Positions 17,056-43,474 of a stretch of DNA of 64,000 nucleotides are shown here, one piece after another. Below the pieces are notes generated by a model. That model ran no database searches and was not told the origin of the DNA. It saw only the letters and a list, made by a program, of their open reading frames with translations. Both the position numbers and the translations under genes were made by a program. The stretch's first letter is position 1, and each line of letters starts with the position of its first letter. This DNA comes from Thermoanaerobaculia bacterium. GTDB lineage: Bacteria > Acidobacteriota > Thermoanaerobaculia > UBA5066. The DNA lies in the NCBI GenBank assembly GCA_022071945.1, contig JAJVIN010000013.1:62001-126000 (forward strand). The letters are read 5' to 3'.

Positions 17056-17062
17056 GGGCGGC

Positions 17063-18862: not shown

Positions 18863-20574
<1,712 letters not shown>

Positions 20575-23761: not shown

Positions 23762-23768
23762 TGTGACC

Positions 23769-26700: not shown

Positions 26701-29700
26701 TCGATCTCGTGGCCCAGCAAACGACTGGAACGGATGGCGCCTTCTACTTCGACTTCGTCGAGGAACCGGCCCAGGGCAGGGGTGTGCTTTCCGGGTTCCT
26801 CGTTCGCGCGGAGACCGGGGGCAGCGCTCCGGAGAGAGAGGAAGTCAGTTCCCGAATCCGCCTGCAGGGCAAGCTCGTCCGCCTGAACGTCGCGTTCCTG
26901 GGCCGGGGAACCGTCCAGGGCCGGCTCGTTTATGAAGACGGCGTTCCGGTCGTGAACGGCTCGGTGACGGTCGCGAACACGCTCTTCTCGGAGATGAAGA
27001 CCGTGGCGGTGACGGGCTCTGATGCCGCCTTCACGGTATCGGGAATCCCGGTCGGGCCGGTCACTGTCACGGGGAGGGACGCGGCCGGAAACAGCGGATA
27101 CGTGACAGTCGGCCTCGAGACCGGCGGACAGGTCAAGAGCGACGTCGTCGTCCGGATCCCGCACCGTTCCTCCCCGAGGACCGGAACAGTGACCGGAACG
27201 GTTGTCGTCCTGCGATCGGGGCAGACGTCGCCGGTGGCGCGGGCACGCGTGGCCCTCTACGCAAGCGGCGGCGCCTTCGGCGAGAGACTCACCGATGCCT
27301 CCGGCAACTTCAGGTTCGAGAGGGTCCCGGAAGGCCAGGTCACGGTACAGGCCGCCGACTTCTCCATCTCCCGGTCACCCGTGGTCTCGGATCTGATGCT
27401 CGTCGCGGATCAAACCGCGAACCTCACCTTGACGCTCGCGGAGGCCGTCACCCGAACGGTCTCGGGGTCGGTCTTCTTCCATGAGCCCGCGACCAACACG
27501 GACGTCCCGGTTGCCGGTGCCGTCGTCTTCGTCGAGGGTCCCGGGAACTTCGCCTACACCGATTCGGCGGGAACCTACCGCATCGAGAACGTTCCCACTC
27601 CCGGGCTCGGTGAGTCGTATCTGGTCACCGCGATCGATCTGGGCCGGAAGCTGCAAGGCTCCGTTTCGCTCGCGCGCTTCGGCGCAACGGCGCCGGAGCC
27701 GATCGCCCTGGGCCGGATCCTCCTGCGGACCATGGCGGGCGCGCTCGAGGGACTCGTTCTCGACCCGCTCGGGAGACCGATCGCCAACGCTGGAGTCGTC
27801 CTCGGGCACCTCGCGGAGACCCGCACGGCATCCGACGGGACCTTCGTGTTCGAAGGCGTCCCGGTGGGCTCCCATTCGGTCACGGCCCATTCCGGGGACG
27901 GTCTCGAGCCAGGACGGCTCGGGTACTTCGGTCTGACGCAAGGCGTCCAGGTCGTCTACGGAGGCCACCGGGCCCGAGTCACGATCCAGATGCGCGGCGC
28001 CGGAGTTGTCAGGGTGGAAACGAAGAGCCCGGGCGGATCCGCTGGCATCCTCTCGCCTCTCTCCATTTCTCGAGAGGCGTTCCTCGACGGGACGAAGGCC
28101 ATCGGTACCAAGACCCTTGAAACAGAGACCAGTCCGGCCGGGTTCTTCGAGATCCCCGTACCCGTCGGGAATTTCGGTGTCCGGGCCAGCCATCCGTTCC
28201 ACGGAACGAAGGCTTCGGGCGGAAGGATCGACTTCCCCGGGCAGATCAAGAACGTCGTCCTCACCTTCGATTCCGCCGCGACGGTCACGGGCCGCGTCCT
28301 TGCCGTCGACGGAGTGACCCCTGTCGACGGGGCCGAGGTCTTCCTGTCGGCCTCCGGGCTCTTGCCGCAGCGACTCCTCACCGGCCCAGACGGAGCCTTC
28401 CGCTACGAGCTGGTTCCTCCGGGCTCCATCTCTCTTTCGGCGAGTGTCCGGATCGGAACCATCACGCGTCACGGCAAGGTGGATGGCTGGGTGACATCCC
28501 CGGGGCAGACGCTCGACCTCACTGTCGTCCTGGGCGCGCAGGGAACAGTTCGCGGCTCGATCAAGAAGAAGGCGTCCGCCGGGGAAGAGCCTGCCCCGAT
28601 TCCGTTCGCGGAGTTCTACGTTCAGGAAAGCAGCCATCCCAACCGGCGGTTCCCCGCCGGATCCGCCTGGTCGCGAGCGACTTCTGCCGGTGCGTTCGAG
28701 GTCGCTGGCGTCTCCTCGGGTCTCGTCACCGTCATCGCTCGCGATCCCGGCAACGTGACCGTGATGGCTCGCGCGCAGGTCCAGATCACGGCGGACTTCC
28801 AGATCGTCGATGTCCCGCCCCTCGTCCTTTTTGAGCCTTCCGGGACGCTCGAGATCACAGTGACGGATCCCGAAACCGGAAGCGGGGTTGCCGATTGCCA
28901 GATCCACCTCTCAAACGGCGAGACGACCGTCGCGGACTCTCTGGGCCGCGCTACTCTCGAGGCTCTCCCGTACGGGACGTACTCCGTGCACGTCTTTCAC
29001 GCTCCGACGGGAAGGGGCGGACACGCGGATGGCCTCTTGATCGACTCGGGGCACGGCCTTGTCGCGAGACAGATCACCCTCGGCGCGAGGGGGAAGATCT
29101 CCGGAACACTCTTTGACGACGCTGCCCGCACGAGAGGGGTTGGGGGCGCGACGATCGCCCTTGCCGGGCGGACGGACGGGCAGAACGGACCCGCGACCTT
29201 CTCTGCGCTCGCCACCACGGACGGCGCGGCCGCCACGCGCGGCGGATTCGCCTTCGAGGGGATCCCGATCGGGACCTACACCCTCACGGCCGGAGTTGCG
29301 GGATCCTCCCGCCGGGCCCAGGGGCAGGCTGCCTTGACGCCGACTTCGACCCAGCAGACGGTGGATCTCGTTCTCGAGCCGATCGGTGATGTGCACGTCC
29401 GGCTCTTCGAGACCCTCAGCCTGAACCCGCTTTCAGAGATCAATCCGGTGCTAGGGCTCTTCTCGGTGAGGCTCCTCCAGCCGGCCGGTTGCTCCCCGGG
29501 AACAGCGGGACCGACGGCCTGCGCCTTCGACTACACGGTTCTGACGCCATCCTCTCCCGCGCCGAACCACCTCTACGTCTTTCCCTCCATCCTGACGTCC
29601 CGTCCGCTCGAGATCCAGGTTCAGGAGGCGACCGGAGAACGGAGGACGGGCCGGGTTCTCGGGGCGACCCTCGCCGGTAGTGGAACGTCCGCGGACCCAT

Positions 29701-32700
29701 ATCGAGCGGTTCTGGAACCGAGAGGCACGCTTCGCGTCGAGGTCAAGGATGCGGGCGGGCAGCCGGTCGCTAACGCGGAGATCCGCGTCAATGGCCCTGC
29801 ATACAGCGCTGCATTCGCGGCTGACAGCGAGGGGAAGAGGGACATCACCTCCGTCCCGCGCGGGGCGCTCTACGTCAGCGCCGTCGCGCCTGGCTCGTTC
29901 TCGGGGCTCGGCGGCAGCGCCACGACCTCCATCGAATTCGATGACGACATCAAGAATGTCCTCGTCAACCTTTCACCCTCCCACTCCGTCGAGGGCCGTG
30001 TCCATCGAGAGCCGGCCAACGGCAGCTACAGCGATCCGGCCGCGCTGCCGGGCGAGCCTCGTGCGGCCATCTCCATTCAGGGGCCCGTTCAACAGGCCGT
30101 CCAGGCGGATGCGGACGGGCGCTACCGCTTCGACGGTCTCCCGGCCGGCACGTACGCCGTAACGGCAACGGGGACCGATGGAGTCTCGGCCTCGGCCTCT
30201 GTCACCGTCCCGGCCCCCGAGGCAGGCATCGTGGCGGCACCACCGCTCGTTCTTGACGGCTCGCGGCCGCTTCTCGTCTCGATCGCGCCTCCGCCCGGAG
30301 CGACCGGAGTCTCCCGCAGCGCAACGGTCGAGCTGGTCTTCTGGGAGCCGCTCCACCCGGCTGTCGTCTCGTCCCTGGCCTCCTACTTCTCGGTTCGCCT
30401 GCCTTCGGGCACGCTCGCGACGGGACTCTGGTCGACCCTCGTCGACACGGTGAACCGGCAGCTCGTTCGCTTCACGCCGGGACCCGCTCCCGATCTTTTC
30501 GCGAGCAACTCCACGTACGCGATCCAGATCAAGGGCGGACCCGACGGCGTGCGGGACAGGGCGGGGAACCGGCTGACCGATTTCCAGGACATCGGCTCGA
30601 ACTTCACCACCGCCGACACCCTCGGCCCGGTCGTCATCGGGACGGTTCCGGGTCTCGACCAGCCCGTCGATCCGCAAGGCACGATCCGATTCGACTTCAA
30701 TGAACCGGTCACCGCTCTTCCCTCGGAGCTGGACGGGAATCTCGTGGATGACGCCGGCGAGCTGTACTACGGACAAGGAACAGAACCCGCCGTGACATGG
30801 TCGCGGATCCCGGTGGAGCTGTACCTCACGTCGAACGGCTACTCCCTGGCGCTCCGGCCTCTCGGTGGACTCTCTTTGCCGGGCGACAACGGCCGCAGAA
30901 GGGTGGTCGTCACTCGCCTGAAAGACAGCTCGGGCAACGCGATGGCGGCTCCCTACATCCGCGAGTTCAGCGTCCGCGACGCCGTGAGCCCTCAACTCGT
31001 GATCGGGTTCCCATCAGGCAGCCTCGACGGCCGCCTTTCCGCGGGAACGGCGTACGTCCTGACGCCGGCGTTCTCCCCGGCCAGCCTGAATGGACCTCCA
31101 CCATTCGGTGACGTCGCCCGCGTCGAGTACTTCACGGCCTCGGCCGCGGACCCGAATCAACCCTCGGCGAGCCCAGCCTTCGTCGCCTCTTCCGCGCCCT
31201 TCACCCTCACATTCGCGCCGAGCTATCAGGGTGATGGGACGACCCCTCGCCCCTACAGCATCTGGGTGACGGCCACCGATACCAGCCTCAACCGGAGCAA
31301 CACCATCAGCCTCGCGATGGAGGTGGTGCCGAATCAACCTCCCGCAATCGGGAGCGTGACGATCGCGCCGGTGGGCGCCGCCTTCTATGCGGGGTCGACC
31401 GTGAGGGCAAGGGTTTCCTCGATCGCCGACCCCGACGGGAACACCCTGACGCTCGCGGCCGAGTTGCGTCGCGAGAATCCGTCGAACCCGAACAACCCGG
31501 CGGATCTCTTGGCCTCCGTTCCCGGTACCGGGCTCACGAAGCCCGCGGGCGGCTGGCAGGACCTTCCACCACAGACCTTCGATCTGGTACTCCCGATCGG
31601 AACGCCAGAGGGAACGCCCATCCTTGTTCGGGTCCGCGCGACGGATTCCCTCGGGGTTTCCGCCACGAGAGATAGCGCCACGGCCCCCGTCGCGGATGAC
31701 ACAGCCTCACCGGTGGTCGTGCAGTTCCAGGCGAGAGCGGCTGGGCAGACGGAGCCTTCGAGCCAGTTCTTCCTGGGTCAGAACGTGCTCTTCGAGTTCC
31801 GCGCCAGCGATGCGGAGACCCAGGTGAAGTCCGTCTCGATCGGCTTCGACGGCGTGTTCGCCTCGCCCGTAACGCCCACGCTCGTCACCGGCGACCAGTA
31901 CAGAACGGCCGAACTCTCGATTCCGCCCGAGGCGATCCCGCAGGGCGGACGCGACGTGATCGCGACGGCCACTGTCGAGGACTGGGGCGGGAATACGAAG
32001 ACCTCCACGCTCATGATCCACATCTCGCCCACGTCCGATCCGACGGCCCCGGTGGTCGAATGGACTTCGCCGGTAGAAGGCGGCCAGTGGCCCGCAGCCT
32101 ACACATCGGTCCGCGGACAGGGAGGAGTTTCCCTGCTCCTGAGGGTTCGAGTCACCGACACCGACCGCGATGCGCAAGGGAATCTGATTCCGGGCACGGT
32201 CATCGGTGTCAAGTTCTGGGGCCCGGTAACTGGAGGAGCGCTCTCCGCAACGCCCATTGATGGGATGCGAGTGACGGGAACGGACGTCTGGCAAGCGTCG
32301 TGGATCGTGCCGGACGGCATGCCCGCCGGTGCCGCGATCGAGTTCAAGGCCGAGGCAACTGATAGTGGTCAGAACAGGTCGACGAAAGCGATCGTCCTGA
32401 CGGCGGTCTCGAATCGGCTCGTCTACGAGAACACCACGACGGCTGTGCCATCGACCGAAACTTGGCCAGGTGCTCCGGCCGTGTTCCTGCTCGATGGGGC
32501 CACGGTGAGCCTCCCGTCGAGGGAAGGCGGCGCCGCGCATTCCGTCGAGAATCTCTACCTCTATTCCGGCGCGGACCAGAACGGTGTTCGGCCTGCAGTC
32601 CTGACGACGCCCGAGATCACGTCGGTGAACTCTCCGGTCCTCTACCACCCGCTCAGACTCGAGATCGGCACACAGCTCGGTCTCGGAGCCGGATCGATCT

Positions 32701-35700
32701 TCAGGACGCGCGGGTTGATGGGCTCGACATCAACCACGACCGTGACGCTCCCGGGAGTGACGCCGCCGGAGATCAATGCTGGCGGTTCTCACGGCGGTCT
32801 CGGCGGAACGGGACTGAAGGCCTCTTCACCGCGAACGAGTCCGGGGTCGATCTACGACAGTGTGCGCGAACCTTCGCTTCCGGGAACCGGAGGCCGGAGT
32901 TGGTCTTCCACCTGGGGCTGGAACGGTGGGGCCGGCGGCGGAGTCGTCATTCTCCGCTCACCCGCGGGTGAGATCCGCCTGGAAGGCGACATCGATGTCA
33001 GCGGGGCGGCCCCGCAACCCGACTACATCGTGAATCCCGGAGGTGCGGGAGGGACGGTCCGGATCGCAGCCAAGAGCCTCCAGGGTGCAGGTCGAATTCG
33101 CGCCAATGGAGGGTCCGCCATAGGAAACCAGTACCAGGTGGGCGCTGGAGGAGGAGGCCGGATCTCGGTGTCCTTCCAGCAGCCTCTTCTCAGTGATCTG
33201 GGTCTCGAGTTCGCGGCCTCGGGCGGAGCGGACTCGACCGCGGCAAGCGAGGTCCTGATATTCGCGGGCGCTGGAACCATCTTCCTTCAACAGCTCGATT
33301 CCCAGAGCCAGCCGGTTGGAAACGGCAAGCTCATCGTCGACAGCCTCGCCTTGAAGCCTGCGGGCCTCACGCCGCTTCCGGCTCTCTGGGGCTGGCGAGA
33401 TGGACAAGCACGGCCGGCAACGGTCGCCGAGGTGGATCTGAACGGAACGAGAATCCGTGTCAACGCCCTGGCCGCGGCCGGAGACTGGAACGGGGAGCGC
33501 ATCATCCTCTCAACGAGCGCCAGCTCGGAGGAATGGTCCGGGATCATCACGTCGGTCGAGCCGACAGCGGACGCGCCTCCACAGTTCTGGCTCGGCCTCG
33601 GCACCGTGACGTCCGGTGCGCTCGAAGCGATCGCTCAGCAGCTCTCCCAGTCTCCGCCAGGAGCGGTGTACGCCCGCGTCCGGTCGAGATTCGATTCCGT
33701 CGAGGTGAAGGGGAACGCTCGTCTCGTTCTCGAAGATGACGTCACGATCGGGCCTGACCCCGGCTTCACGAACGATCGAGCCGCCTTCTCGACCGGCGCG
33801 AATGCGAGCGTCCTCCTCAGAAGCGACCTTCCGACCGCGACCTTCGTCGCGAACCCCGAAGCCAGCATCGCGCCTCCGGGATCGATTTCCTTCCAGTACG
33901 GTTTCGACCACCCCGTCGGAATCCTCCGAAGAGACACACTCTGGTCGCAGTCGGGATACGCCTCCTCTGAGTCCTACCGGGAATACGAGGCGCCACGGAC
34001 GTACGCGTGGGGACCGGTTCAACTCCCGATCCCGGCGACACAGCCTCCGGGAACCGTACAGTACAAGGTGAAGCTCTGGGACCTCGCGGGCCGCGTGGGA
34101 GAGAGCGTGAAGGAGTGGACCGTCCTGCCGGAGAACGTCCCGCCCCAGCTCAGCTCGATCACTCTCGCTCCCACCCGTGCCGGAGACGCCTACACCGCCG
34201 GGCAGCCTGTGACGATCTCCGTCTCCGCGACCGACAACGTCGCCGTTGCCCGGGTCGTGATGACCGTCGGGAGCGACGTCAGGGAGTTCAAGGCTCCTCC
34301 CTTCGCGCCCGTGACGCTCGTCTGGACGGCTCCACCCGTCTCCTCCCCCACCCAGATCGTGGTGACGGCCGAGGCTTTTGATCAGGCCGGGAACCATTCC
34401 AGCACGTCCAGGTCCCTCACCGTCAACCCACTCCCGAACGCGAACCCCCCGGCCGTCAACCTTTGTCCATCGACCGGCGCGCACGTCCCCTCAGGTCTCG
34501 GCACCTTCCAGCTCATAGCCAGCACCTCGGACGACCTCGGCGTCTACAAGGTCGAGTTCTACAAGGGCAACGAGCCCGCGCCGTTCACCGTCCGCATGCC
34601 CTCCGGTGGAGGAACACTGGCGAGCTTCGTGACGAAGTCGGAGCCCTCCGCGCTCCCCACTGTTTCCGAGGCGACTCCTCTCGAGTTCACAGTCAAGGCG
34701 TACGACGCTTCGGGCAATGTCGCGACGGCATCCGCCACACTCACCGTCGTTCCGGCTGTCGCGCTCTCGGCAACGGGCCCGAATGACTGGCCCGCTCTGA
34801 CGAGCCAGACCGTCTACCTCTCCGAGGGCGTCCTGTCCCTGACTGAAGACGTCCGTTTCGCGAACCTGATCCTTCTCGATGGAGCTGTGATCACGCATCC
34901 GGAGGGCGCCGACAAGGCGGTCCGGATCGACACCGGTTCCGGATTCGTGGAGATCCAGTGCTCCGCCGCGATCGATGTGACCGGGAAGGGGTTCGCTCCG
35001 GGCGCGACCTACCCCACGCTCACGCCCGCCAGTCCCTCCGAGGGCGGAAGCCATCTGGGCATCGGCGGCGGGATCACCGGCACGTCTGGAAGAACCTACG
35101 GCAGCGTCGTTCGACCCCGGGAGGCCGGGGCCGGCGGAGGGAGTGATGGCTCCGGAGGCGGTGTCGTCAAGGTCACCGCCGGCAACCTCTCACTTCACGG
35201 GGAAGCCCGCATCGCGGCCAACGGAACGGGCGCGTCCGCCGGCGGCGCCGGCGGAGCCATCTGGATCGACGCGGGCCGGATCCATGCCCCGTTCTGGACG
35301 GGTGCAATCGAAGCCAAGGGTGCAGGCACGGCACCAGCTGGAGGCGGAGGTGCCATCGCCGTCTCCTACAGCGATCCGGCCAGCTCCGTCGATGTGACGA
35401 GGCTCTCGGCGGGCGGCGGAGGCTCGGGCACGAGCCCGTCAAACGGCGGGGCAGGCACGGTTCTCATAGCGGGACCCGCTTCGACCTTCGGCACACTCAC
35501 TATTGACAATGGTGGCGTCTCCGGGCAGCCGACAGTCCTGCCTGCCCTCGGTTCAGGAAACTCGGCGGCCGGGACATCCGGACGGATCCTGGCGACGGGA
35601 ATGGCGTCGATACCGTCCTACTTTGCGGGTCACTGGCTCGAGCTTGAAGCTGGCGGCGCTCCTGCCGGACTCTGGCGGGTCGAGTCGGTGGAGGGGGGAA

Positions 35701-38700
35701 TGCTGACGCTGGAACCCGCCGCGAACCTTGATTCCGGGCTGACATACCAGTGGAGAGGCTCCTATCGCTTCGACCAGACAATCGTCCGAAGCGGCGCCCG
35801 CCTTCAGTCGGCGGATCTGTTGAAGGACGCGGTTCCAACTGTCAGCGTGAGCGCGCCTGGTCCCGGAACGACAGTCGTGTCCGGGCGGATGGTGACGGTC
35901 CTTGCGATCCCCGGCGACGACTCGGGGTTGAAGAGCCTGGAGGCCTGGCTCGGATCGGCCTCGGCGACGGTGCAGGTCCCGGCCGTGGGACAGCAGGCAA
36001 CACTCGTCCTCACCGCGCCGTTCGTGGCCGTATCGACTCCCGCCGCCCTCGAGGTTGCGGCTGTCGATCTCGGAAACCAGCGGACCGTCCAGCAGATCGC
36101 GGTCACAATCGCGCCGGATCCGATCCCGGTCGTGACGGCTTCCGCGACGCCGCCATCCGCCGACGCGGGTCAGACTGTGACGGTCAGCTATTCGGCCACC
36201 GATGATCTCGCACTGACGGCGATCGAACTCTCGGTCTCGGGTGTCGTCACGGTCTCGGAATCCAGACAGGTTTCCGGGACGAGCGCATCAGGGACCTTCT
36301 CGATTCCCATACCAGCGGATGCCGTCCCCGGCGATCTCCGGATCGTCGTCTCCGCCACCGACACAACGGGCGGACGCGGCTCCTCTCAACCCATCACGGT
36401 CGCCGTCAGGCGTCCGGCTCTCGTGAACGTCACCACATCGGCCGCGGTCCACGGCCCTGGTGATGTGATCGCCGTGACGGTGATTGCGCGGCACCCTGGC
36501 CTTGTCCGGCAGCTGCGCGTCGGTGTGACCGGGGCGTTCTCCTACCAGCGGCTCGTTACCGTTTCGGCGGCGGGAGTCGCCGAGACTGAGCGCGAGATCG
36601 GGATTTCCGTTCCGAGAGGGAACCTCTCTGGTCCCGTCTCCATCACGGTCACTGCCGTTCCCATCACGGGGAGTGACCTGATCTCTTCGCCGGCCCTCGT
36701 GCAGATCGTCGACTCGCAAGCTCCCGTCGCGTGGTCCTTCGACATCCATCCGGACGGGCCGGTTCCGGCCGGCCGAGATCTCGAACTGGCTGTGCAGGCC
36801 GTGGATTCCGGTGGTGTCGCCAGCGTCGCCTTCGTCCTCGTGACGGGCGGGGAACAGGAATTGTCGCGAGTCGAATCCCGTGCTGAGCTGTCACGCTTCG
36901 TCGCCCCGGTCACCTTGCCCGCTGGACTACCACAGGGCGCGGTGACGATCCGGGCGGATGTTCGAGACCACGCCGGCAACCTGACCTCCCTCTCCAGAAC
37001 TGTCGTCGTCTCGCCGCAATCGTCCCCGCACGTCTGGTTCCACTGGCCCTCGAACGGGGCGCCAGTGCTCCCGGGAGGCTCCATCCAGGCATATGTCATG
37101 AACGCGGGACCGTCTGAGATGACGTCCATCGACTGGTTCATCGGCGGTGTCGCCGTGACGCCGGAGGTCCTCGAGGCTCCGTTCAACGTCCGGCTCGCCG
37201 TTCCCGCGGGGCTCACGGGCCCATCGGTGACTCTACTGGCGAGGGTTCACTCCGCATCCGGCGTCACGGAGGTCACCCGTGAACTCGCGCTGGTTTCCGG
37301 TGCCGTCGTCGTGGATGCACCGCGCCGCCTCGAGGACGGCGACCTCTCTCTCGAGAACCAGATCGTCGCGGTGAAGAACGCGACGCTGACCCTTCGCGGC
37401 GAGCATCACTTCCAGCAACTGATCGTGCTCGAGGGCGCGCGTGTGACGAGCGACGCGGCCGGTGTGGGAGAGCCCTCGCCGGTTGGTCTCCACGTCGCTG
37501 GCCTCCTGTATGTGGATCCGAATTCCGCGATCGACGTCAGAGGTCTCGGCTACCTCGGTGGCCTCGAGGAGGGCAACCCGCATCCGGAGGGCCGGACTGT
37601 GGGGCAACAGGCCGGCAGCGACCCGATGGCGGGTGGCAGCGCCGCCGGCCTCGGTGGAAGAGGCTCGGGAACTCCCGTTGCGGGGCCGGCGTACGGCTCG
37701 ATCAGGAACCCGGTGAACGCCGGGTCCGGCGGAGGCGCCTCCCTCGATGGCAACCCGGGAGGTGCCGGGGGAGGGTTGATTCGGGTTCACGCCGGCAGAA
37801 TCCTCAACGATGGAGGTCTCGGTGCCGACGGCAACGATGGCTGGGGCGGAGGCGGCTCCGGCGGCTCCCTGCTCCTGGATGCTCCCGTCATCGAGGGCCG
37901 CGGGGTCGTATCTTGCCGCGGGGGCGCTGCCGCACAGGGCCTGTCCGGTACGGGCGGCACGGGAGGCGGCGGGCGGATGGCGCTCCTTGGAGCAACCACC
38001 CACCGTAATCTCTGGCTGACGGCATCGAGCAGCTCCCAGGCATGGGACGACGGAGGCGCGGGAACGATCTTCATGAAAGATCCGCGCGAGCCCTTCGGTC
38101 ACCTCGTCGTCGACAATGGAGCAGCTACCCGTGGAGCGAAAACTCCGCTCGTCTCCATTGGCTCGGGAACGATCTCGGCCGTGGAGGGAACGGCCATTCG
38201 CGGCGGGCAGACCAACTGGAAATCCGGCGTTTCCGGCAGCTTCGTCGATGTCACGCGCGGCCCCGACTTCATCGGACGGTTCCGGGTTGAGAGCGCGGAC
38301 GAGGCTACTCAAACAGTGACGCTCGAACCCGAAGCCCTCCTGCAAATCCTGCCTGGCGACGCGTATCAGGGTGTCCAGGTCTTCGACAGCATTCATGTCA
38401 GGTCTCGGGCAAGTCTGGAGACCTCGGACAAGCTCGAGGGCAGACTCGCGGTTTCCGCCGATTCCTCGGTACGGGCCGCCAATGTCCAACAGTTGCCGCC
38501 GGATGCACCGCCCGTTGTCGCCCTTACGCCCTCGGCGGTATCCGTCTTCCCTGGTTCGTCGCTGATTGTCACTCTTCAGGCGTCCGATGACGTTGGGCTC
38601 GTGAGTGCCGTCTGGAGCACGATGGGGGCGCTCGAGACCCCGGAGACAGCCCTCCCTCTCAGCGGCACCACCCGGCAGGAACAGTTCACGATTCCGGTCC

Positions 38701-41700
38701 CTCCGGGAACGCCTCCCGGCCGTACGGCCATCGTCGCCAGGGTGCTCGACAGCGCGGGGAACCGGACCTGGGCGGCCTTGCGAGTCTTCGATGTCCTGGC
38801 CGATGGGGCTCCGACGGTCACGGCTTCCGCCGAACCTCCTACCGTCACAGCCGGTCAGACGCTCATAGTGACCTACGCCGCCTCCGACGACATCGCCCTC
38901 ACGACCGTAGCGCTGGAGGCCTCCGGAGCCGTGACCTCGAGCCAGTCGCGCGCGGTGTCCGGCAGCACGGCATCGGGCACGTTCTCGATTCCTATTCCCG
39001 CCGGGACATTTCCCGGCGACATCTCGATCACGGTAACAGCCACGGATTCGCGGGGAGGAGTTTCTTCCGCACCGAATCTGACCGTCCCGGTTGTTGGCCC
39101 TCCGCTCCTGCCCGGCGAGGACATGGCGGAGGGCAGCGCCAGCGGGTGGCAGGCCTTCTCACAAGACGGTGCCCCTGCCGCTGTCGCCAACGAGACGACA
39201 CAGCGAGTGCGCGGCCAGCAGTCCCTGAAGTTCACATCCGAGAGCCAGGAAGTCGCCGGAATCCGGTACACAGTGCCCGCCGGAGGCTCGTGGGATCTCA
39301 GTCAGGCCACGGTCTTCTCGTTCTGGGAACTCGCCGGGGGCGAGAGAGAGTTCACCGGACCTCAGCCCGTTGTCGTCCTCAGAAGCGTCACGGGCGAGTC
39401 CTTCTACCACCCCGCGGCGCCACGGATGTCGGCGGGGAGCTGGCGGCGGTACGTGGTCTCCCTCTCCGATCTCGGCGTCTTCGCAAGGACCACAGATGGG
39501 GATCCCTCTCTCTCGGAGATTCGCGAAATCGAGATCCGGCATCGGGCCACGGGCCCTGTCGCGAGCTACACGATCTACGTCGACGGAATCCAGTTCATGA
39601 CCGAGCTGGAAGGAGACTTGGCGGAGGGGAATGCCGGCCTGTGGACACCTTTCGCGGACGGTGGCGAGCCTGTGTCGGCAGGGCTCGAGACCAGCCGGAT
39701 GCGAGCGGGCGCCTCCGCGATCCGGTTCGTTACGGAAAGCGGCGGGGGAACCGGGCTGCGCTTCGCGGCCGGAGCACGGCCGAACTGGGACCTCTCGAGC
39801 ATCCAGAGTCTCTACTTCTACACGTGGGCGGAAAACCCGAGTCCGTTCGGGTTCCAGGGAATGGCCGTTTACCTCCGCGGTCCGGCCGGGACCTACCGCT
39901 ACACGCCTGCTCAGCTTCAGCTGGAAAACGGTGCCTGGAGGCTGCACGAGGTGCCCCTCGGTGGCGACGCAGGCTGGATTCGCGAGATCGCTGACGGAAG
40001 CCCTGACCTGTCCTCCATGGACGAGATCGAAATCTGGTTCGACACGTGGGACGCGGGGTTCACGGTCTTCGTCGACGGGGTGACCTTTGGCCAGCGGATG
40101 CCGCTTCTGAGCGTCCTTCCGCGCCAGGTTCCCGCCGGCCAGCCGGCCGAGGCAACTGTCCGGTTAAATGAACCCGCGCCCGCTGGCGGCCGGGTGCTTT
40201 CCATCACGAGTTCGGATCCAGCCGTGTCGCTGACGGGGCCGCTCATCGTTCCTGAGGGGGAGGTCTTCGCGGCCTTCCCGGTCACGACCGGCGGCCAGGC
40301 GGCCACGACCGTCACGCTCACGTGGGACGATGGCGGCCGCAATCGTACCGCCAGCCTCGATCTGACGAACCTCGTCTTGAGCAGTGGTGACTATCCCGAT
40401 ACAGTCGCCTTCCCCGGTCCCGTCGTCGTCGAGGGATCGATCGGCGCAACTCGACTCGAGGCCGGGTCCCTCACAGTGAAGAATGGCTCGGAGCTCCGGC
40501 CCCTCTCGACTGCGAATCCCGGCGGTTCGAGCCCCCAGCCCCTCATTCTGATCGTCGAGGGGAACACTGTCGTCGAGGAGGGCGCTTCCATTCACGCCAA
40601 CGGTTTTGGATACGGTCCCGGAAAGTCACATCCGTCGGCCGTACCCTCTCAGCCCGGGAGTGGGGGTAGCCACATCGGTCTGGGGGGCCAAAACTCCACC
40701 GGCGCCGGGACGTCGTTCGGGAGCGTCACCACGCCTTTCGAGGCCGGAGCCGGAAACGGCGGAATGGAAGGCTTCGGCGGTGGCGTCATCTACTTGCGCA
40801 CCGGCTCACTGAGAGTCGATGGTGCCATGACGGCTCATGGAGGGGCTCCGGGGGGCGGGGGTGGGTCGATCCAGATCCGGACGGGCGCCTTGTCCGGAAT
40901 CGGTGAAGTCGGCGCTCTCGGGCAGGATTCGGAGGCGGGTTCGGGTGCCGGTGGCGCCATCTCCATCGTCTACTCGAGTGAGGCCGATGGGATTCTGGAA
41001 CGAGTCAATGCGAGAGCGGGCGGGGGCAGCGTCTCGAGCCACTTCGGGGGCGCCGGGACAGTCTTCCTCTTCGGCCCAGCTTCCACCTACGGCGAACTCA
41101 TCGTCGACAACTGGGACCTCCAGCCCGCCGAGAAGACTGTCCTCCCGGGGCTCGGCGGAGGTCTCGCCCAGGCGGGCTCGGGCGGAGCGATCATGGAAAC
41201 GGGCCGTCCCGAGATTCCATTCTTCTTCGTCAATCACTGGGTCGAGGTCAAGGACCCGGGCGGCGTTTCGAAAGGACTGCACCGCGTCATCTCGACCGGA
41301 CCCGGCGGCCGCCTGGAGCTTCTGGCCGGCGCCTCGGTCTCGCCCGGCGACTCCTGGCGAGGAATCTACCTCTTCGATCGCGTCACACTCAGACGGGGGG
41401 GCTCCCTCGAATCGGCCGATCCCCTCCATCCCGATGTCCCGGTCATCCTCGAATCGAACAGCATTCGATCTCCGGTCGTGACGAGCGGGCCCGTCGAGAT
41501 CAGGGGCGGCGTCACCGTCCCGTCGATCTCGGCGCGCTCTCTTCTCCTGCGGACAGACGGTCAGCTTTCCCCGCCAGACACGGCCGGGGCAGGCGAGCCG
41601 GCCGTCCTTCACCTCGATATTCAAGAGAGCCTTCATCTCGAGGCTTGGTCGTCCATCAATGCCATCGGGCTCGGCTATCGCGCCGGCGGTTCGGTCCCCG

Positions 41701-42641
41701 GCTCCACAGCCTCGGAGGGAAATGCCGGAGGCAGCCACCTGGGACTCGGCGGCGTGGGTGGAGGCTCGGCAGGGAGCGCCTTCGGCAGTGTCCATCAGCC
41801 TCTCGAGGCGGGTGGAGGCCCCGGCTCGGGGGATGCCCGGGGAGGAGGTGCCGTGCGGATCTCCGCCGGGAGCCTTTCCGTCGCCGATGGAGCAGGAATC
41901 TACGCCGACGCAGCACCCGGCTCGGGGCCGGGAGGCGCGGGCGGATCGATCTGGATCACAGCCGGCGAACTCTCGGGCGATGGCTGGATTGCGGCCCGCG
42001 GCGCCGAGTCCGCGTCCGCCTCCGGTGCGGGAGGCGTCATCAGTGTCGAGTACACAGCCCTTGCTGAAGGATCTGCGCTGCTCCAGCGCGTAACGGCCCA
42101 CCCCGGTGGGAGCGCCGCTTCGGAGTTCGCCGGCGGCGGCACGATTCTGATCCGCCAGACGGGACAGCCGTACGGAGACCTCCTCGTCCATGGTTTTGGC
42201 ATCACGGGCGGCCGTGCGACCGTCCTGCCATCGCTGGGCTCGGGAGCCGCGCTGGCAGGCAGTGGTGGAGCCCTCCTGCGAATCGCTAGGCCGGAGCCCG
42301 TTCCGCCCTATTTCCTCGGGCACTGGGTCGAGATCAAGACATCGCTCGGTGCCGAAAAAGGGCGCCATCGCATTACGAGCGTCGGCGGCGATGGAAGAGA
42401 CCTGACGCTTTCGGGAGACCCCGGCATCGTCGAGGGCGATCTCTGGAACGGACTCTATCTCTTCGGGTCTGTCAACGAGGAAGGCGGCGCAACCTTGCAG
42501 AGCGGCGATCCCGTCACGATTGTCCCGCTCCCCTTGGGCTTTCCCTTGACACCCTCGAGGCTGACGACGGTCCCCGTGCCCTCCCCGAATCCCCCGAAAG
42601 GACGACATTCCAGGAATCGCTCCCGGTCGGAGGCGAACTGA
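23769..42641 (+). CDS. giant secreted multidomain protein (Ig-like, carboxypeptidase-regulatory-like, glycine-rich modules), about 6290 residues
   Basis: A signal peptide (CAALFVALLAGLLAPARLDA) ends near residue 35. In order: N-terminal beta domains to about 930; about 13 tandem carboxypeptidase-regulatory-like domains (about 935-2157); two SbsA/Big_5-like Ig domains (about 2165-2400); further Ig-like domains; and five large glycine-rich modules (about 2883-3331, 3671-4018, 4510-4891, 5536-5891, 5898-6251) separated by Ig-like domains. A pair of carbohydrate-binding-like modules lies at about 5117-5445. The tail is short, basic and proline-rich, without LPxTG, PEP-CTERM or an autotransporter barrel, so the anchoring route is unknown. 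All features suggest a very long exported surface fibre or adhesin; no enzyme motif was seen. The stop overlaps the next start (TGATG), so translation is coupled to the 277-residue gene. Confidence 0.9.
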   Translation: MFRSSRDDCRASACAALFVALLAGLLAPARLDAADPLASGQLQIQGSSLGLYYDSQTTDAEQTVNAGEAVRIRTCYGSGPCGQSTAPGLRVRGDLRGPELSQPVTYETVPGGTFFLPGFQVEGDYFLENIRLEENGRVLGHSSPPVAVVHVRKILLTEARVSRLTLEELRARGISLNQENAQAYRFAIGFAFGSQTVTLEMPVLYQGAGSVEPLEKPTVNLDGLPPDVAQSVRRWEPPRIVPFKLDLPPSAQLDVQEQGEEAPAEMPLFGAIVIPGSISFLNQFFEARLIVANGADAGSSLQLGNIRAALRLPSGGAVRLARTDPPVGAGTWLPVLGQGGDNSLDPTEQGSAAWTVEGLVTGTHALRMDIAADLRRPGRPALELAGSSQAAVEVVDARFNLAFSHPDTVRDGEAYSLFVTVTNLSRAAMNEVSVAFGQISGAHVIGSPSQAISTLPAGGSETLEFRMLSETTGKCFATTFQTASAGLTGSITLRTGVGELGIPLSPATLVLPRHARRLPPALLSANQRFLGLAYSLAVAPAGAAPQGLPHVIRSDVERRATDLGEAGQRLFLNEPLLESLEVLALDQLGNRHDLQELDTLRRKSDKGLAAAAALGTELRTLQASHVPVLDAASLFDHFISTTSYSRPFLAAVLVPSGGRPAPVLEVTKTSSLGFAALAYSAEESGQARLRNVPYGEIYSVSESGTGGALVPLAMVGRLDRTAAYALRLWANAGTDARGRLIVLAPNHDGVGFVRVEFPNLDLRAGDIFEILVVPPSSSEPATFEVRRAGSGLPVAGVQAVVQPVTLPPFRITGAVQDFDLDPYGSAISYLFNRPPAKASAENAALYQIATTSDVEEAAGGETAVRVSTKMGAAAFWQPNSERVVNVRFAGPISPLSGGGGRPLVTHVHTVAAGVADTFGNSLATAAPSPVLEAGHTGGLVEGKVLDGLSNPISGARVSLLRWRQPVNELGAAAGSPVLDLVAQQTTGTDGAFYFDFVEEPAQGRGVLSGFLVRAETGGSAPEREEVSSRIRLQGKLVRLNVAFLGRGTVQGRLVYEDGVPVVNGSVTVANTLFSEMKTVAVTGSDAAFTVSGIPVGPVTVTGRDAAGNSGYVTVGLETGGQVKSDVVVRIPHRSSPRTGTVTGTVVVLRSGQTSPVARARVALYASGGAFGERLTDASGNFRFERVPEGQVTVQAADFSISRSPVVSDLMLVADQTANLTLTLAEAVTRTVSGSVFFHEPATNTDVPVAGAVVFVEGPGNFAYTDSAGTYRIENVPTPGLGESYLVTAIDLGRKLQGSVSLARFGATAPEPIALGRILLRTMAGALEGLVLDPLGRPIANAGVVLGHLAETRTASDGTFVFEGVPVGSHSVTAHSGDGLEPGRLGYFGLTQGVQVVYGGHRARVTIQMRGAGVVRVETKSPGGSAGILSPLSISREAFLDGTKAIGTKTLETETSPAGFFEIPVPVGNFGVRASHPFHGTKASGGRIDFPGQIKNVVLTFDSAATVTGRVLAVDGVTPVDGAEVFLSASGLLPQRLLTGPDGAFRYELVPPGSISLSASVRIGTITRHGKVDGWVTSPGQTLDLTVVLGAQGTVRGSIKKKASAGEEPAPIPFAEFYVQESSHPNRRFPAGSAWSRATSAGAFEVAGVSSGLVTVIARDPGNVTVMARAQVQITADFQIVDVPPLVLFEPSGTLEITVTDPETGSGVADCQIHLSNGETTVADSLGRATLEALPYGTYSVHVFHAPTGRGGHADGLLIDSGHGLVARQITLGARGKISGTLFDDAARTRGVGGATIALAGRTDGQNGPATFSALATTDGAAATRGGFAFEGIPIGTYTLTAGVAGSSRRAQGQAALTPTSTQQTVDLVLEPIGDVHVRLFETLSLNPLSEINPVLGLFSVRLLQPAGCSPGTAGPTACAFDYTVLTPSSPAPNHLYVFPSILTSRPLEIQVQEATGERRTGRVLGATLAGSGTSADPYRAVLEPRGTLRVEVKDAGGQPVANAEIRVNGPAYSAAFAADSEGKRDITSVPRGALYVSAVAPGSFSGLGGSATTSIEFDDDIKNVLVNLSPSHSVEGRVHREPANGSYSDPAALPGEPRAAISIQGPVQQAVQADADGRYRFDGLPAGTYAVTATGTDGVSASASVTVPAPEAGIVAAPPLVLDGSRPLLVSIAPPPGATGVSRSATVELVFWEPLHPAVVSSLASYFSVRLPSGTLATGLWSTLVDTVNRQLVRFTPGPAPDLFASNSTYAIQIKGGPDGVRDRAGNRLTDFQDIGSNFTTADTLGPVVIGTVPGLDQPVDPQGTIRFDFNEPVTALPSELDGNLVDDAGELYYGQGTEPAVTWSRIPVELYLTSNGYSLALRPLGGLSLPGDNGRRRVVVTRLKDSSGNAMAAPYIREFSVRDAVSPQLVIGFPSGSLDGRLSAGTAYVLTPAFSPASLNGPPPFGDVARVEYFTASAADPNQPSASPAFVASSAPFTLTFAPSYQGDGTTPRPYSIWVTATDTSLNRSNTISLAMEVVPNQPPAIGSVTIAPVGAAFYAGSTVRARVSSIADPDGNTLTLAAELRRENPSNPNNPADLLASVPGTGLTKPAGGWQDLPPQTFDLVLPIGTPEGTPILVRVRATDSLGVSATRDSATAPVADDTASPVVVQFQARAAGQTEPSSQFFLGQNVLFEFRASDAETQVKSVSIGFDGVFASPVTPTLVTGDQYRTAELSIPPEAIPQGGRDVIATATVEDWGGNTKTSTLMIHISPTSDPTAPVVEWTSPVEGGQWPAAYTSVRGQGGVSLLLRVRVTDTDRDAQGNLIPGTVIGVKFWGPVTGGALSATPIDGMRVTGTDVWQASWIVPDGMPAGAAIEFKAEATDSGQNRSTKAIVLTAVSNRLVYENTTTAVPSTETWPGAPAVFLLDGATVSLPSREGGAAHSVENLYLYSGADQNGVRPAVLTTPEITSVNSPVLYHPLRLEIGTQLGLGAGSIFRTRGLMGSTSTTTVTLPGVTPPEINAGGSHGGLGGTGLKASSPRTSPGSIYDSVREPSLPGTGGRSWSSTWGWNGGAGGGVVILRSPAGEIRLEGDIDVSGAAPQPDYIVNPGGAGGTVRIAAKSLQGAGRIRANGGSAIGNQYQVGAGGGGRISVSFQQPLLSDLGLEFAASGGADSTAASEVLIFAGAGTIFLQQLDSQSQPVGNGKLIVDSLALKPAGLTPLPALWGWRDGQARPATVAEVDLNGTRIRVNALAAAGDWNGERIILSTSASSEEWSGIITSVEPTADAPPQFWLGLGTVTSGALEAIAQQLSQSPPGAVYARVRSRFDSVEVKGNARLVLEDDVTIGPDPGFTNDRAAFSTGANASVLLRSDLPTATFVANPEASIAPPGSISFQYGFDHPVGILRRDTLWSQSGYASSESYREYEAPRTYAWGPVQLPIPATQPPGTVQYKVKLWDLAGRVGESVKEWTVLPENVPPQLSSITLAPTRAGDAYTAGQPVTISVSATDNVAVARVVMTVGSDVREFKAPPFAPVTLVWTAPPVSSPTQIVVTAEAFDQAGNHSSTSRSLTVNPLPNANPPAVNLCPSTGAHVPSGLGTFQLIASTSDDLGVYKVEFYKGNEPAPFTVRMPSGGGTLASFVTKSEPSALPTVSEATPLEFTVKAYDASGNVATASATLTVVPAVALSATGPNDWPALTSQTVYLSEGVLSLTEDVRFANLILLDGAVITHPEGADKAVRIDTGSGFVEIQCSAAIDVTGKGFAPGATYPTLTPASPSEGGSHLGIGGGITGTSGRTYGSVVRPREAGAGGGSDGSGGGVVKVTAGNLSLHGEARIAANGTGASAGGAGGAIWIDAGRIHAPFWTGAIEAKGAGTAPAGGGGAIAVSYSDPASSVDVTRLSAGGGGSGTSPSNGGAGTVLIAGPASTFGTLTIDNGGVSGQPTVLPALGSGNSAAGTSGRILATGMASIPSYFAGHWLELEAGGAPAGLWRVESVEGGMLTLEPAANLDSGLTYQWRGSYRFDQTIVRSGARLQSADLLKDAVPTVSVSAPGPGTTVVSGRMVTVLAIPGDDSGLKSLEAWLGSASATVQVPAVGQQATLVLTAPFVAVSTPAALEVAAVDLGNQRTVQQIAVTIAPDPIPVVTASATPPSADAGQTVTVSYSATDDLALTAIELSVSGVVTVSESRQVSGTSASGTFSIPIPADAVPGDLRIVVSATDTTGGRGSSQPITVAVRRPALVNVTTSAAVHGPGDVIAVTVIARHPGLVRQLRVGVTGAFSYQRLVTVSAAGVAETEREIGISVPRGNLSGPVSITVTAVPITGSDLISSPALVQIVDSQAPVAWSFDIHPDGPVPAGRDLELAVQAVDSGGVASVAFVLVTGGEQELSRVESRAELSRFVAPVTLPAGLPQGAVTIRADVRDHAGNLTSLSRTVVVSPQSSPHVWFHWPSNGAPVLPGGSIQAYVMNAGPSEMTSIDWFIGGVAVTPEVLEAPFNVRLAVPAGLTGPSVTLLARVHSASGVTEVTRELALVSGAVVVDAPRRLEDGDLSLENQIVAVKNATLTLRGEHHFQQLIVLEGARVTSDAAGVGEPSPVGLHVAGLLYVDPNSAIDVRGLGYLGGLEEGNPHPEGRTVGQQAGSDPMAGGSAAGLGGRGSGTPVAGPAYGSIRNPVNAGSGGGASLDGNPGGAGGGLIRVHAGRILNDGGLGADGNDGWGGGGSGGSLLLDAPVIEGRGVVSCRGGAAAQGLSGTGGTGGGGRMALLGATTHRNLWLTASSSSQAWDDGGAGTIFMKDPREPFGHLVVDNGAATRGAKTPLVSIGSGTISAVEGTAIRGGQTNWKSGVSGSFVDVTRGPDFIGRFRVESADEATQTVTLEPEALLQILPGDAYQGVQVFDSIHVRSRASLETSDKLEGRLAVSADSSVRAANVQQLPPDAPPVVALTPSAVSVFPGSSLIVTLQASDDVGLVSAVWSTMGALETPETALPLSGTTRQEQFTIPVPPGTPPGRTAIVARVLDSAGNRTWAALRVFDVLADGAPTVTASAEPPTVTAGQTLIVTYAASDDIALTTVALEASGAVTSSQSRAVSGSTASGTFSIPIPAGTFPGDISITVTATDSRGGVSSAPNLTVPVVGPPLLPGEDMAEGSASGWQAFSQDGAPAAVANETTQRVRGQQSLKFTSESQEVAGIRYTVPAGGSWDLSQATVFSFWELAGGEREFTGPQPVVVLRSVTGESFYHPAAPRMSAGSWRRYVVSLSDLGVFARTTDGDPSLSEIREIEIRHRATGPVASYTIYVDGIQFMTELEGDLAEGNAGLWTPFADGGEPVSAGLETSRMRAGASAIRFVTESGGGTGLRFAAGARPNWDLSSIQSLYFYTWAENPSPFGFQGMAVYLRGPAGTYRYTPAQLQLENGAWRLHEVPLGGDAGWIREIADGSPDLSSMDEIEIWFDTWDAGFTVFVDGVTFGQRMPLLSVLPRQVPAGQPAEATVRLNEPAPAGGRVLSITSSDPAVSLTGPLIVPEGEVFAAFPVTTGGQAATTVTLTWDDGGRNRTASLDLTNLVLSSGDYPDTVAFPGPVVVEGSIGATRLEAGSLTVKNGSELRPLSTANPGGSSPQPLILIVEGNTVVEEGASIHANGFGYGPGKSHPSAVPSQPGSGGSHIGLGGQNSTGAGTSFGSVTTPFEAGAGNGGMEGFGGGVIYLRTGSLRVDGAMTAHGGAPGGGGGSIQIRTGALSGIGEVGALGQDSEAGSGAGGAISIVYSSEADGILERVNARAGGGSVSSHFGGAGTVFLFGPASTYGELIVDNWDLQPAEKTVLPGLGGGLAQAGSGGAIMETGRPEIPFFFVNHWVEVKDPGGVSKGLHRVISTGPGGRLELLAGASVSPGDSWRGIYLFDRVTLRRGGSLESADPLHPDVPVILESNSIRSPVVTSGPVEIRGGVTVPSISARSLLLRTDGQLSPPDTAGAGEPAVLHLDIQESLHLEAWSSINAIGLGYRAGGSVPGSTASEGNAGGSHLGLGGVGGGSAGSAFGSVHQPLEAGGGPGSGDARGGGAVRISAGSLSVADGAGIYADAAPGSGPGGAGGSIWITAGELSGDGWIAARGAESASASGAGGVISVEYTALAEGSALLQRVTAHPGGSAASEFAGGGTILIRQTGQPYGDLLVHGFGITGGRATVLPSLGSGAALAGSGGALLRIARPEPVPPYFLGHWVEIKTSLGAEKGRHRITSVGGDGRDLTLSGDPGIVEGDLWNGLYLFGSVNEEGGATLQSGDPVTIVPLPLGFPLTPSRLTTVPVPSPNPPKGRHSRNRSRSEAN
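26570..30240 (+). repeat. array of about 13 carboxypeptidase-regulatory-like beta-sandwich domains in the first giant protein
   Basis: Repeated protein pattern: G-x-V-x-G-x-V near each start, a central P-(V/I)-x-G-A, then DGxFxFxxVPxGxYxVTA near each end. Examples are GTVTGTVVVLRSGQTSPVAR and GALEGLVLDPLGRPIANAG; the last unit ends GLPAGTYAVTATG. Units are spaced about 250-300 nt. The copies are divergent at DNA level, so the array is old. Such domains are usual stalk or spacer units in secreted proteins. Confidence 0.75.
32415..33760 (+). repeat. glycine-rich module, copy 1
   Basis: The most divergent of five copies. It contains INAGGSHGGLGGTG, NGGAGGGVVIL, GAGGGGRISVSFQ and GAGTIFL, followed by GNGKLIVDSLALKP. 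The end is altered relative to the others, with an extra WGWRDGQ segment. Confidence 0.6.
34780..35820 (+). repeat. glycine-rich module, copy 2
   Basis: Contains EGGSHLGIGGGITG, GSVVRPREAGAGGGSDGSGG, GGAGGAIWIDAGRI, GGAGTVLIAGPASTFGTL, TVLPALGSGNSAAG and YFAGHWLELE, ending RLQSADLLKDAVP. Order and spacing match copies 3-5. Confidence 0.75.
36115..36412 (+). repeat. Ig-like domain, duplicated copy A
   Basis: About 97 residues beginning PVVTASATPPSADAGQTVTV and containing SGTSASGTFSIPIPADAVPG. It pairs with copy B at 38803-39095; the two proteins are clearly alike, while the DNA has drifted at many third positions. Confidence 0.65.
37297..38440 (+). repeat. glycine-rich module, copy 3
   Basis: Contains GGSAAGLGGRGSGTP, YGSIRNPVNAGSGGGASLDG, GGAGGGLIRVHAG, GGAGTIFMKDPREPFGHLVV, TPLVSIGSGTISA and ASLETSDKLEG. 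The HWVEI word seen in other copies is replaced by GSFVDV. Confidence 0.7.
38803..39095 (+). repeat. Ig-like domain, duplicated copy B
   Basis: Begins PTVTASAEPPTVTAGQTLIV and contains SGSTASGTFSIPIPAGTFPG, mirroring copy A. It lies just before the carbohydrate-binding-like pair. Confidence 0.65.
39115..40100 (+). repeat. tandem pair of carbohydrate-binding-like (jelly-roll) modules
   Basis: Two successive units of about 160 residues each follow one plan: an (M/L)AEG start, then GW/LW, a QQSLKFTSES or ASAIRFVTES strand, WDLS, a middle strand region, LSEIREIEIR or LSSMDEIEIWF, and a closing YTIYVDGIQF or FTVFVDGVTF. The pattern resembles family-11-like or other beta-jelly-roll carbohydrate-binding modules; assignment is tentative. 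Confidence 0.5.
40376..41440 (+). repeat. glycine-rich module, copy 4
   Basis: Contains GGSHIGLGGQNSTGAG, FGSVTTPFEAGAGNGGM, GGGGGSIQIRTGALSGIGEV, GGAGTVFLFGPASTYGELIV, TVLPGLGGGLAQAGSGGAIM and FFVNHWVEVKDPGG, ending GSLESADPLHPD. It is directly adjacent to copy 5. Confidence 0.75.
41460..42520 (+). repeat. glycine-rich module, copy 5
   Basis: Contains GGSHLGLGGVGGGSAGSAFG, SVHQPLEAGGGPGSGDARGG, GGAGGSIWITAGELSGDGW, GGGTILIRQTGQPYGDLLV, TVLPSLGSGAALAGSGGALL and YFLGHWVEIKTSLG, ending ATLQSGDP. It ends about 40 residues before the stop. Confidence 0.75.
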
Positions 42642-43474
42642 TGAGCATCCCGAAGGTCTTGTCCCTGGCAGTATTCTTGACCGCGCCCGTTGCGGCTCAG
42701 CCGGTCGCGTTCCCGCAGCCCTTCGCCGTGGAGCGGCAAGTGCGGCAGATCGCCCCGGAATCAGGAGAGACCTTTCAGACGCCGCCCGCGACGGAGTACT
42801 ACTTCGGGAACCACCTGGCGATCGTCCGCGCGAATGGCACGAAGGCGCTGATCGATTTCGAGAAACGCGAGTACACGGAAGTCGATCTGAAGCGAGGGAC
42901 GTACTGGACGTTGACGTTCAGCCGCCTCGGCGAGTTGCGGGAGCGGATCCGGGCGGCGGAGAACCCTGAAGGGCAGCCGGAGAAGAGCGCAACCCTCGCC
43001 TCGAGGCCCGATGTGAAGATCGACCAACTCCCGGCCGCCGGAAAGCCGAATGTGAAGACGACGGGAACCCGGCGTCTCCGCGCATCCATCGACGGAGGCG
43101 CGAACTGGGCAGAAGCGACGTACGACGACTCGATCCCTTTCGGGGAGAAGGCCGTCGCCGCCCTCGAGACGCTCGATTCGGCCTTCACCGGCGGGCCGAA
43201 AGCGGATCCCACACGAACGGCCGAGTTGATCTCGGCTCTCCGCTCGGCGGGCCAGGGCGCCTTCGTGGTCCGGTTCGAGAAGCCCCTCTCGGTCCGGGGA
43301 GGCCGGGCTCTCGGGAAGAGCGAGGACATCGTTCTCGACTGGAAGCGGCTCGAGAAAGACCCCGTCGAGCAGTTGCGAATCCCGGAGAATCACAAGCGAA
43401 TCCCTTCTCCTCTCGAGACCGTCGCCGTCTTCGCCGAGGAAGAGGCCGAACTGAAGAGCCGCGGCAGGAAGTAA
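42641..43474 (+). CDS. exported protein of unknown function between the two giant genes
   Basis: A 277-residue protein with a clear signal peptide (MSIPKVLSLAVFLTAPVAAQ). The ATG shares its first base with the upstream stop (TGATG), so it should be translated by ribosomes finishing the giant gene. The mature part has short beta strands early (TEYYFGNHLAIVRANGTKAL) and many Glu/Lys/Arg residues. It is cysteine-free, has no membrane helix after the signal and shows no motif I recognise. Its position suggests a periplasmic or surface accessory, perhaps a chaperone, clamp or assembly factor for one giant; that is inference. The RHS gene starts 9 nt after its stop. Confidence 0.75.
   Translation: MSIPKVLSLAVFLTAPVAAQPVAFPQPFAVERQVRQIAPESGETFQTPPATEYYFGNHLAIVRANGTKALIDFEKREYTEVDLKRGTYWTLTFSRLGELRERIRAAENPEGQPEKSATLASRPDVKIDQLPAAGKPNVKTTGTRRLRASIDGGANWAEATYDDSIPFGEKAVAALETLDSAFTGGPKADPTRTAELISALRSAGQGAFVVRFEKPLSVRGGRALGKSEDIVLDWKRLEKDPVEQLRIPENHKRIPSPLETVAVFAEEEAELKSRGRK

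What the first reader, a model, noticed from the sequence alone, without database searches (positions are those of the whole stretch)
32415..42520. Five-copy glycine-rich module of about 350 residues with no family I recognise
Each copy has the same ordered words: GGSHLGLGG, (F/Y)GSV-x2-P-x-EAG, GGAGG-(A/S)-IWI-x-AG, GGAGT-x-L/I, TVLP-x-LGSG, YF-x2-HWVE and S(L/F)ES-x-DPL. Glycine density and short strand spacing suggest a beta-helix with a cap. The number and order of conserved words indicate a real domain rather than low complexity.
Basis: seen in the sequence. Interest (0 to 1): 0.75.

Follow-up and report, generated by a model that had tools for sequence, protein, structure and literature searches.

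The report
Giant toxin-partner rod with repeated β-helix module
A 6,292-residue, probably secreted protein of an Acidobacteriota bacterium carries five copies of an undescribed ~360-residue building block predicted to fold into a rod bearing a small barrel, and its gene sits directly upstream of a second giant gene for a toxin-carrying RHS protein in most relatives where the neighbour can be seen, which makes it a candidate for the missing adhesion or delivery partner of such toxins.

Summary
The five-copy module is real. The copies are homologous, and a profile built only from other genomes scores them 154-296 bits against at most 8.3 bits for about 4,000 shuffles. No Pfam, NCBIfam or PHROGs model and no solved structure covers the unit by sequence. 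AlphaFold2 predicts copy 4 confidently (pLDDT 95): a β-helix (residues 1-261) plus a small β-barrel (262-337). In the model of tandem copies 4+5, single β-helices of known proteins align across the junction, so the barrel looks inserted into a continuous rod rather than being a cap. The module sits in the C-terminal half of a 6,292-aa protein (gene 1) with a signal-peptide-like N-terminus. Gene 1 runs in a tight operon into a 277-aa gene and a 6,578-aa RHS/YD-repeat protein with an RHS core and an unidentified C-terminal domain. In 148 genomes of the class, 36 of 37 with modules also have this RHS giant, against 5 of 111 without. C-termini of RHS relatives include a deaminase toxin and a Tle1-type phospholipase. 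Best reading: a rod-forming surface or matrix partner of a giant polymorphic RHS toxin. The fold class is known; the domain family and the giant pair appear undescribed. A delivery role is inferred, not shown.

The parts
23763..42641 (+). Gene 1: 6,292-aa giant with a signal-peptide-like start, nine CarboxypepD_reg stretches, Big_5 and Big_7 Ig-like domains and five β-helix modules
   Evidence: signal peptide judged by eye
23889..26462 (+). Conserved N-terminal region of gene 1 (~860 aa), no Pfam match, shared with module giants of relatives
32412..33884 (+). Module copy 1 (491 aa, divergent, long insertions; orthologous to the first copy of G403 and G363 giants)
34752..35852 (+). Module copy 2 (367 aa)
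37290..38492 (+). Module copy 3 (401 aa, divergent; groups with the last visible copy of G403)
40362..41441 (+). Module copy 4 (360 aa; predicted structure, pLDDT 95)
41145..41372 (+). Predicted small β-barrel inserted in copy 4 (module residues 262-337)
41442..42545 (+). Module copy 5 (368 aa), directly tandem to copy 4
42641..43474 (+). Gene 2: 277-aa protein, signal-peptide-like start, no family; start overlaps the stop of gene 1 (TGATG)
   Evidence: relatives at both G363 loci
43484..63220 (+). Gene 3: 6,578-aa RHS giant (two DUF7305, ten Glucodextran_B matches, Big_5, CarboxypepD_reg, DUF6531, RHS repeats)
62279..62470 (+). RHS-associated core of gene 3 with PHEARDPWG at its end
   Evidence: TIGR03696 E 7.9e-15; motif
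62468..63217 (+). C-terminal extension of gene 3 after the core (250 aa), candidate toxin domain, no family match
63217..63687 (+). Small ORF overlapping the end of gene 3; candidate immunity gene by position only
   Evidence: no family

Best explanation
The module is a rod-building repeat. Each copy adds a stretch of glycine-rich β-helix and carries one small β-barrel inserted between helix turns; tandem copies stack end to end. Five such units lie in the C-terminal half of a giant, probably secreted protein (gene 1). Gene 1 is made in an operon with a small protein and a giant RHS protein that carries a swappable toxin domain. I infer that gene 1 is the surface or extracellular rod that grips cells or matrix (through the barrels or the glycine-rich face) and so holds or presents the RHS toxin shell at the contact site. 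Shown: homology of the copies, absence from family libraries, tight gene layout, conserved pairing with the RHS giant, swapped C-termini. Predicted with good confidence: β-helix plus barrel. Inferred only: export, adhesion, contact with the RHS protein, delivery.
For: Copies real. Confident fold of copy 4 and of tandem copies, pTM 0.82 with no weak junction. β-helix matches: Awp3b adhesin Z 9.5, pertactin Z 8.7. Single β-helices align across the copy 4/5 junction: EspC Z 9.0, 3.8 Å over 181 residues, model 245-615; Hbp Z 8.0, 3.8 Å over 171, 246-616; HMW1 Z 10.2, 5.4 Å over 269, 76-598. Barrel matches over residues 262-337. Tandem copies in relatives repeat every ~350 residues without linkers. 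Operon layout. RHS-type giant directly downstream of module giants in 11 further loci matched by BLAST and in two more distant genomes. Co-occurrence 36/37 against 5/111 genomes. Swapped toxin-type C-termini in RHS relatives.
Against: No export route is visible: no autotransporter, TPS or anchor domain was found in gene 1. Z-scores of 7-10 are common for β-helices and do not prove descent. Some relatives have modules without an RHS neighbour (G359, G119, G274, G231; Thiodictyon plasmid), and in G029 the two giants lie on different contigs. Nothing shows physical contact between the two giants. The toxin of the window itself is unidentified.
Confidence: 0.5

Rival explanations
1. Gene 1 is a stand-alone adhesin or matrix filament. 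Its link with the RHS giant is shared regulation of surface genes, not a joint machine.
For: Homologues without an RHS neighbour in some Acidobacteriota genomes and in a gammaproteobacterial plasmid. β-helix and Ig-like composition is typical of adhesins.
Against: The pairing with the RHS giant is close to one to one in the class and the two are directly adjacent in most loci where the neighbour is visible. The genes are nearly contiguous.
Confidence: 0.3
2. The modules are carbohydrate-active: β-helix enzymes or carbohydrate-binding units related to GH110, digesting or binding matrix polysaccharide.
For: The barrel matches the GH110 barrel at 1.8 Å over 64 residues, and GH110 is a β-helix with small β-barrels. 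Best Foldseek hits of the tandem model are GH110 (E 1.4e-3).
Against: No sequence relation to GH110 by profile. The conserved positions are nearly all glycine, and no adjacent aspartate pair like Asp-344/Asp-345 of PdGH110B is conserved.
Confidence: 0.15
3. Low-complexity glycine-rich sequence without a real domain.
For: High glycine content.
Against: Shuffled controls score at most 8.3 bits against 154-296. Cross-genome conservation and a confident fold.
Confidence: 0.01

Closest known systems
β-helix passengers of TPS exoproteins and autotransporters (HMW1, EtpA, EspC, Hbp, pertactin)
   Same: Right-handed β-helix rod; single helices align across the junction of two module copies
   Different: Gene 1 has no TPS or autotransporter domain in the Pfam scan; the module carries an inserted barrel and is tandemly repeated; identities are 5-19%
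Awp3b A-domain (Candida glabrata adhesin-like wall protein)
   Same: Top structural match of the single module's helix part (Z 9.5, 3.5 Å over 175 residues); a cell-wall adhesin-like β-helix
   Different: Eukaryotic, no sequence similarity (9% identity)
GH110 α-1,3-galactosidases (PdGH110B)
   Same: β-helix with small β-barrel domains; one barrel matches at 1.8 Å over 64 residues
   Different: No sequence relation found; no conserved adjacent aspartate pair; GH110 is a dimeric enzyme
RHS polymorphic toxins and bacterial teneurin-like proteins (for gene 3)
   Same: RHS repeats, RHS core with PxxxxDPxG, variable C-terminus, Ig-like and carboxypeptidase-regulatory domains (PMC6425310, PMC13018210)
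   Different: Unusual size (6,578 aa), N-terminal DUF7305 domains, and a conserved giant partner upstream that the passages I read in those papers do not describe

Membership tests
Any Pfam-A, NCBIfam or PHROGs family over the unit | Match to the family model over the module | tested here: not met
Right-handed β-helix (fold class) | β-helical solenoid | tested here: met
   By prediction only: pLDDT 95.3 and structural matches
TPS exoprotein or autotransporter | N-terminal TPS domain or C-terminal translocator domain | tested here: not met
   Neither is among the Pfam matches of gene 1
GH110 / clan GH-N enzyme | Three catalytic aspartates, two of them adjacent | tested here: inconclusive
   No adjacent Asp pair among conserved columns, but no residue-level superposition was possible
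RHS polymorphic toxin (gene 3) | RHS repeats, RHS core and DPxG cleavage motif | tested here: met
RHS polymorphic toxin (gene 3) | Toxin-type C-terminus that is swapped between relatives | tested here: met
   C-termini largely unalike; XOO_2897-type deaminase, Tle1-like and DUF900 domains in relatives; the window's own C-terminus has no match
RHS polymorphic toxin (gene 3) | Immunity gene directly downstream | tested here: inconclusive
   An ORF overlaps the end of gene 3 at 63217-63687 with no family match
T6SS-loaded Rhs | PAAR or VgrG domain | tested here: not met
   None among the Pfam matches of gene 3
Bacterial teneurin-like protein (gene 3) | FN-plug, NHL propeller and YD shell in that order | tested here: inconclusive

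The most novel reading that the evidence does not exclude
Gene 1 is a dedicated adhesion and delivery rod for secreted, T6SS-independent RHS toxins: a two-giant (plus small protein) contact-dependent toxin system with a new β-helix-plus-barrel rod domain. It would supply the delivery part that the 2026 survey of bacterial teneurin-like toxins says is not known.
Probability: 0.25. Interest if true: 0.85.

Novelty: new variant of a known kind. Interest (0 to 1): 0.6.

Why it matters
The unit is a recurrent, confidently predicted domain with no library entry, found at up to ten copies per protein, mainly in Acidobacteriota (class Thermoanaerobaculia by its named relatives) and at least once on a gammaproteobacterial plasmid. 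Within the class its near-constant partner is a giant RHS polymorphic toxin. How secreted teneurin-like RHS toxins reach target cells without obvious delivery machinery is stated as unknown in PMC13018210; a conserved giant surface-type partner gives a concrete protein to test. The tandem β-helix with one barrel per repeat would also be a naturally modular extracellular rod.

Tried and rejected
Low-complexity artefact: rejected by shuffles. Known Pfam, NCBIfam, PHROGs or PADLOC domain: none. PDB by sequence profile: only chance-level hits (the tau hits probably reflect glycine-rich composition). Phages and viral contigs: no relative by sequence; weak structural matches in the viral library to collagen-like and PA14 proteins were not pursued. 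Foldseek against PDB gave no E below 1e-3. Other phyla could not be searched with the genome search because only handles of this phylum were at hand, so distribution outside Acidobacteriota rests on plasmid records. Alignments A1 and A2 failed as scan queries for lack of conserved words; A3 worked and named the relatives. A literature search for the motif words found nothing relevant. The window's RHS C-terminus matched no family, and its PDB hits to designer repeat and ribosomal proteins are taken as chance.

Full report
OBSERVATION. The region is one open frame, window 23763-42641, 6,292 aa. Five copies of the unit lie at 32412-33884, 34752-35852, 37290-38492, 40362-41441 and 41442-42545. 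A profile built from 50 copies of other genomes, with no window sequence in it, scores the five copies at 154-296 bits; about 4,000 shuffled versions reach at most 8.3 bits. The own genome has only these five.

KNOWN FAMILIES. Pfam finds Big_7 Ig-like domains (and a DUF4175 match just above its cut-off) between copies, and CarboxypepD_reg, SpaA and Big_5 in the first half of the protein, but nothing on the unit. NCBIfam and PHROGs find nothing on it, and a scan of 55 members gives no Pfam family below E 0.005. No solved structure matches by sequence profile.

RELATIVES. In 396 genomes of the phylum, 23 have the module; in 148 of the class, 37. Named relatives are Acidobacteriota and Thermoanaerobaculia MAGs. 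The carrier proteins are mostly giants, up to 7,380 aa with ten copies. Of 100 domain matches in the fetched contigs, 62 reach the end of the C-terminal barrel part and 34 stop before or near its start, so the barrel part seems optional (counted by match ends, so divergent barrels may be missed). The tree shows that copy 1 groups with the first copy of related giants (100/100), copies 4 and 5 are nearest each other and look like a duplication in this lineage (100/99), genome G412 has a recent tandem expansion, and genome G363 holds two whole loci whose modules pair one to one. Outside the phylum, a plasmid of Candidatus Thiodictyon syntrophicum (Gammaproteobacteria) has two matching places, the best 42.8% identical to the G231 module, without an annotated RHS gene nearby.

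STRUCTURE. Copy 4 with the 55-sequence alignment gives pLDDT 95.3 and pTM 0.94. By structural alignment residues 1-261 match β-helices (Awp3b Z 9.5, 3.5 Å over 175; pertactin Z 8.7, 4.2 Å over 167) and residues 262-337 match small β-barrels of phage tail-tip proteins, a gene-transfer-agent protein and V-ATPase subunits (Z about 6-7, 2.5-2.8 Å over about 70). The tandem 4+5 model has pLDDT 88.8, pTM 0.82 and no low-confidence junction. Single β-helices align across the junction: EspC 245-615, Hbp 246-616, SepA 63-616, HMW1 76-598. The barrel alone matches the GH110 barrel at 1.8 Å over 64 residues; GH110 is itself a β-helix with two small β-barrels. Tandem copies in relatives repeat every ~350 residues without linkers. 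I read this as a continuous glycine-rich β-helix with one inserted barrel per repeat. Residues 79-141, among the most conserved and glycine-rich, are predicted with high confidence but with almost no DSSP strands, so they may form an ordered non-β layer; I could not inspect coordinates. Z-scores in this range do not prove common descent.

CONTEXT. The stop of gene 1 overlaps the start of a 277-aa gene (TGATG), which ends 9 bases before a 6,578-aa RHS giant. The RHS giant has two DUF7305 domains, Ig-like domains (ten Glucodextran_B matches), CarboxypepD_reg, DUF6531 and RHS repeats, the RHS core and PHEARDPWG. Directly downstream of module giants, a relative of this RHS giant stands in G363 (two loci), G412, G411, G042, G067, G318, G144, G380, G334 and G034, and an RHS-type giant in the more distant G372 and G198 (the RHS match of G372 is weak, E 5e-4). 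In G067 both giants are split over several frames. Contig ends hide the neighbour in G392, G403, G021 and G223. G029 has the two on different contigs, and G359, G119, G274 and G231 show no RHS neighbour. In G314 modules and YD-type motifs lie in one frame. Across 148 genomes of the class, modules and RHS giant co-occur in 36 of 37 module genomes against 5 of 111 others (Fisher p 8e-28; genomes are related, so the p-value overstates independence, and I counted only RHS-giant matches above about 85 bits). The C-termini after the core are largely unalike between relatives, with one weak similarity between G363 and G380, and include an XOO_2897-type deaminase (E 2.5e-18) and a Tle1-like phospholipase (E 6.5e-35) and a DUF900 hydrolase: the hallmark of polymorphic toxins. 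The window's own C-terminus is unidentified.

MECHANISM. Gene 1 (signal-peptide-like start, carboxypeptidase-regulatory and Ig-like domains, then β-helix modules) fits an extracellular rod. The near-constant pairing with a toxin-carrying RHS shell suggests that the rod serves that toxin by anchoring, presenting or bringing it to a target. A survey of bacterial teneurin-like RHS toxins reports an immunity gene downstream and says the delivery machinery is not known (PMC13018210); the passages I read report no upstream giant partner. Homologues without RHS neighbours show that the rod domain can serve other purposes.

VERDICT. A new domain family of a known fold class, in a conserved and apparently undescribed pair of giant genes. 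The structural claim is predicted with good confidence; the joint function is inferred.

Noticed in passing
genome G238, contig C3, 391998-392699: A partial match to the middle of the RHS giant lies in an open frame of 27,346 aa, an extreme size.
   Followed up: no
window 23889-26462: The first ~860 residues of gene 1 are conserved (30-50% identity) in 46 of 148 class genomes but match no Pfam family; 11 of these genomes showed no modules.
   Followed up: partly
window 43484-45600: The RHS giant begins with two DUF7305 domains, the first also scoring weakly as bactofilin: more β-helix-like sequence at its N-terminus.
   Followed up: no
RHS giant, window 43484-63220, in the protein stretch SFPSPRVSGERVPEGGVRGLLPGSGSSGDPLS...GEGGRRPGEG: A low-complexity proline/glycine/arginine-rich stretch breaks the domain pattern in the middle of the RHS giant and resembles translated intergenic repeat DNA (seen).
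   Followed up: no
locus L089 (G314:C73:1-9896): One open frame of 2,630 aa holds both modules and YD-type repeat motifs, a possible fusion of the two partners.
   Followed up: partly
window 14650-20574: Ordinary housekeeping block upstream: MutS2-like, DnaG primase and a sigma-70 factor.
   Followed up: yes
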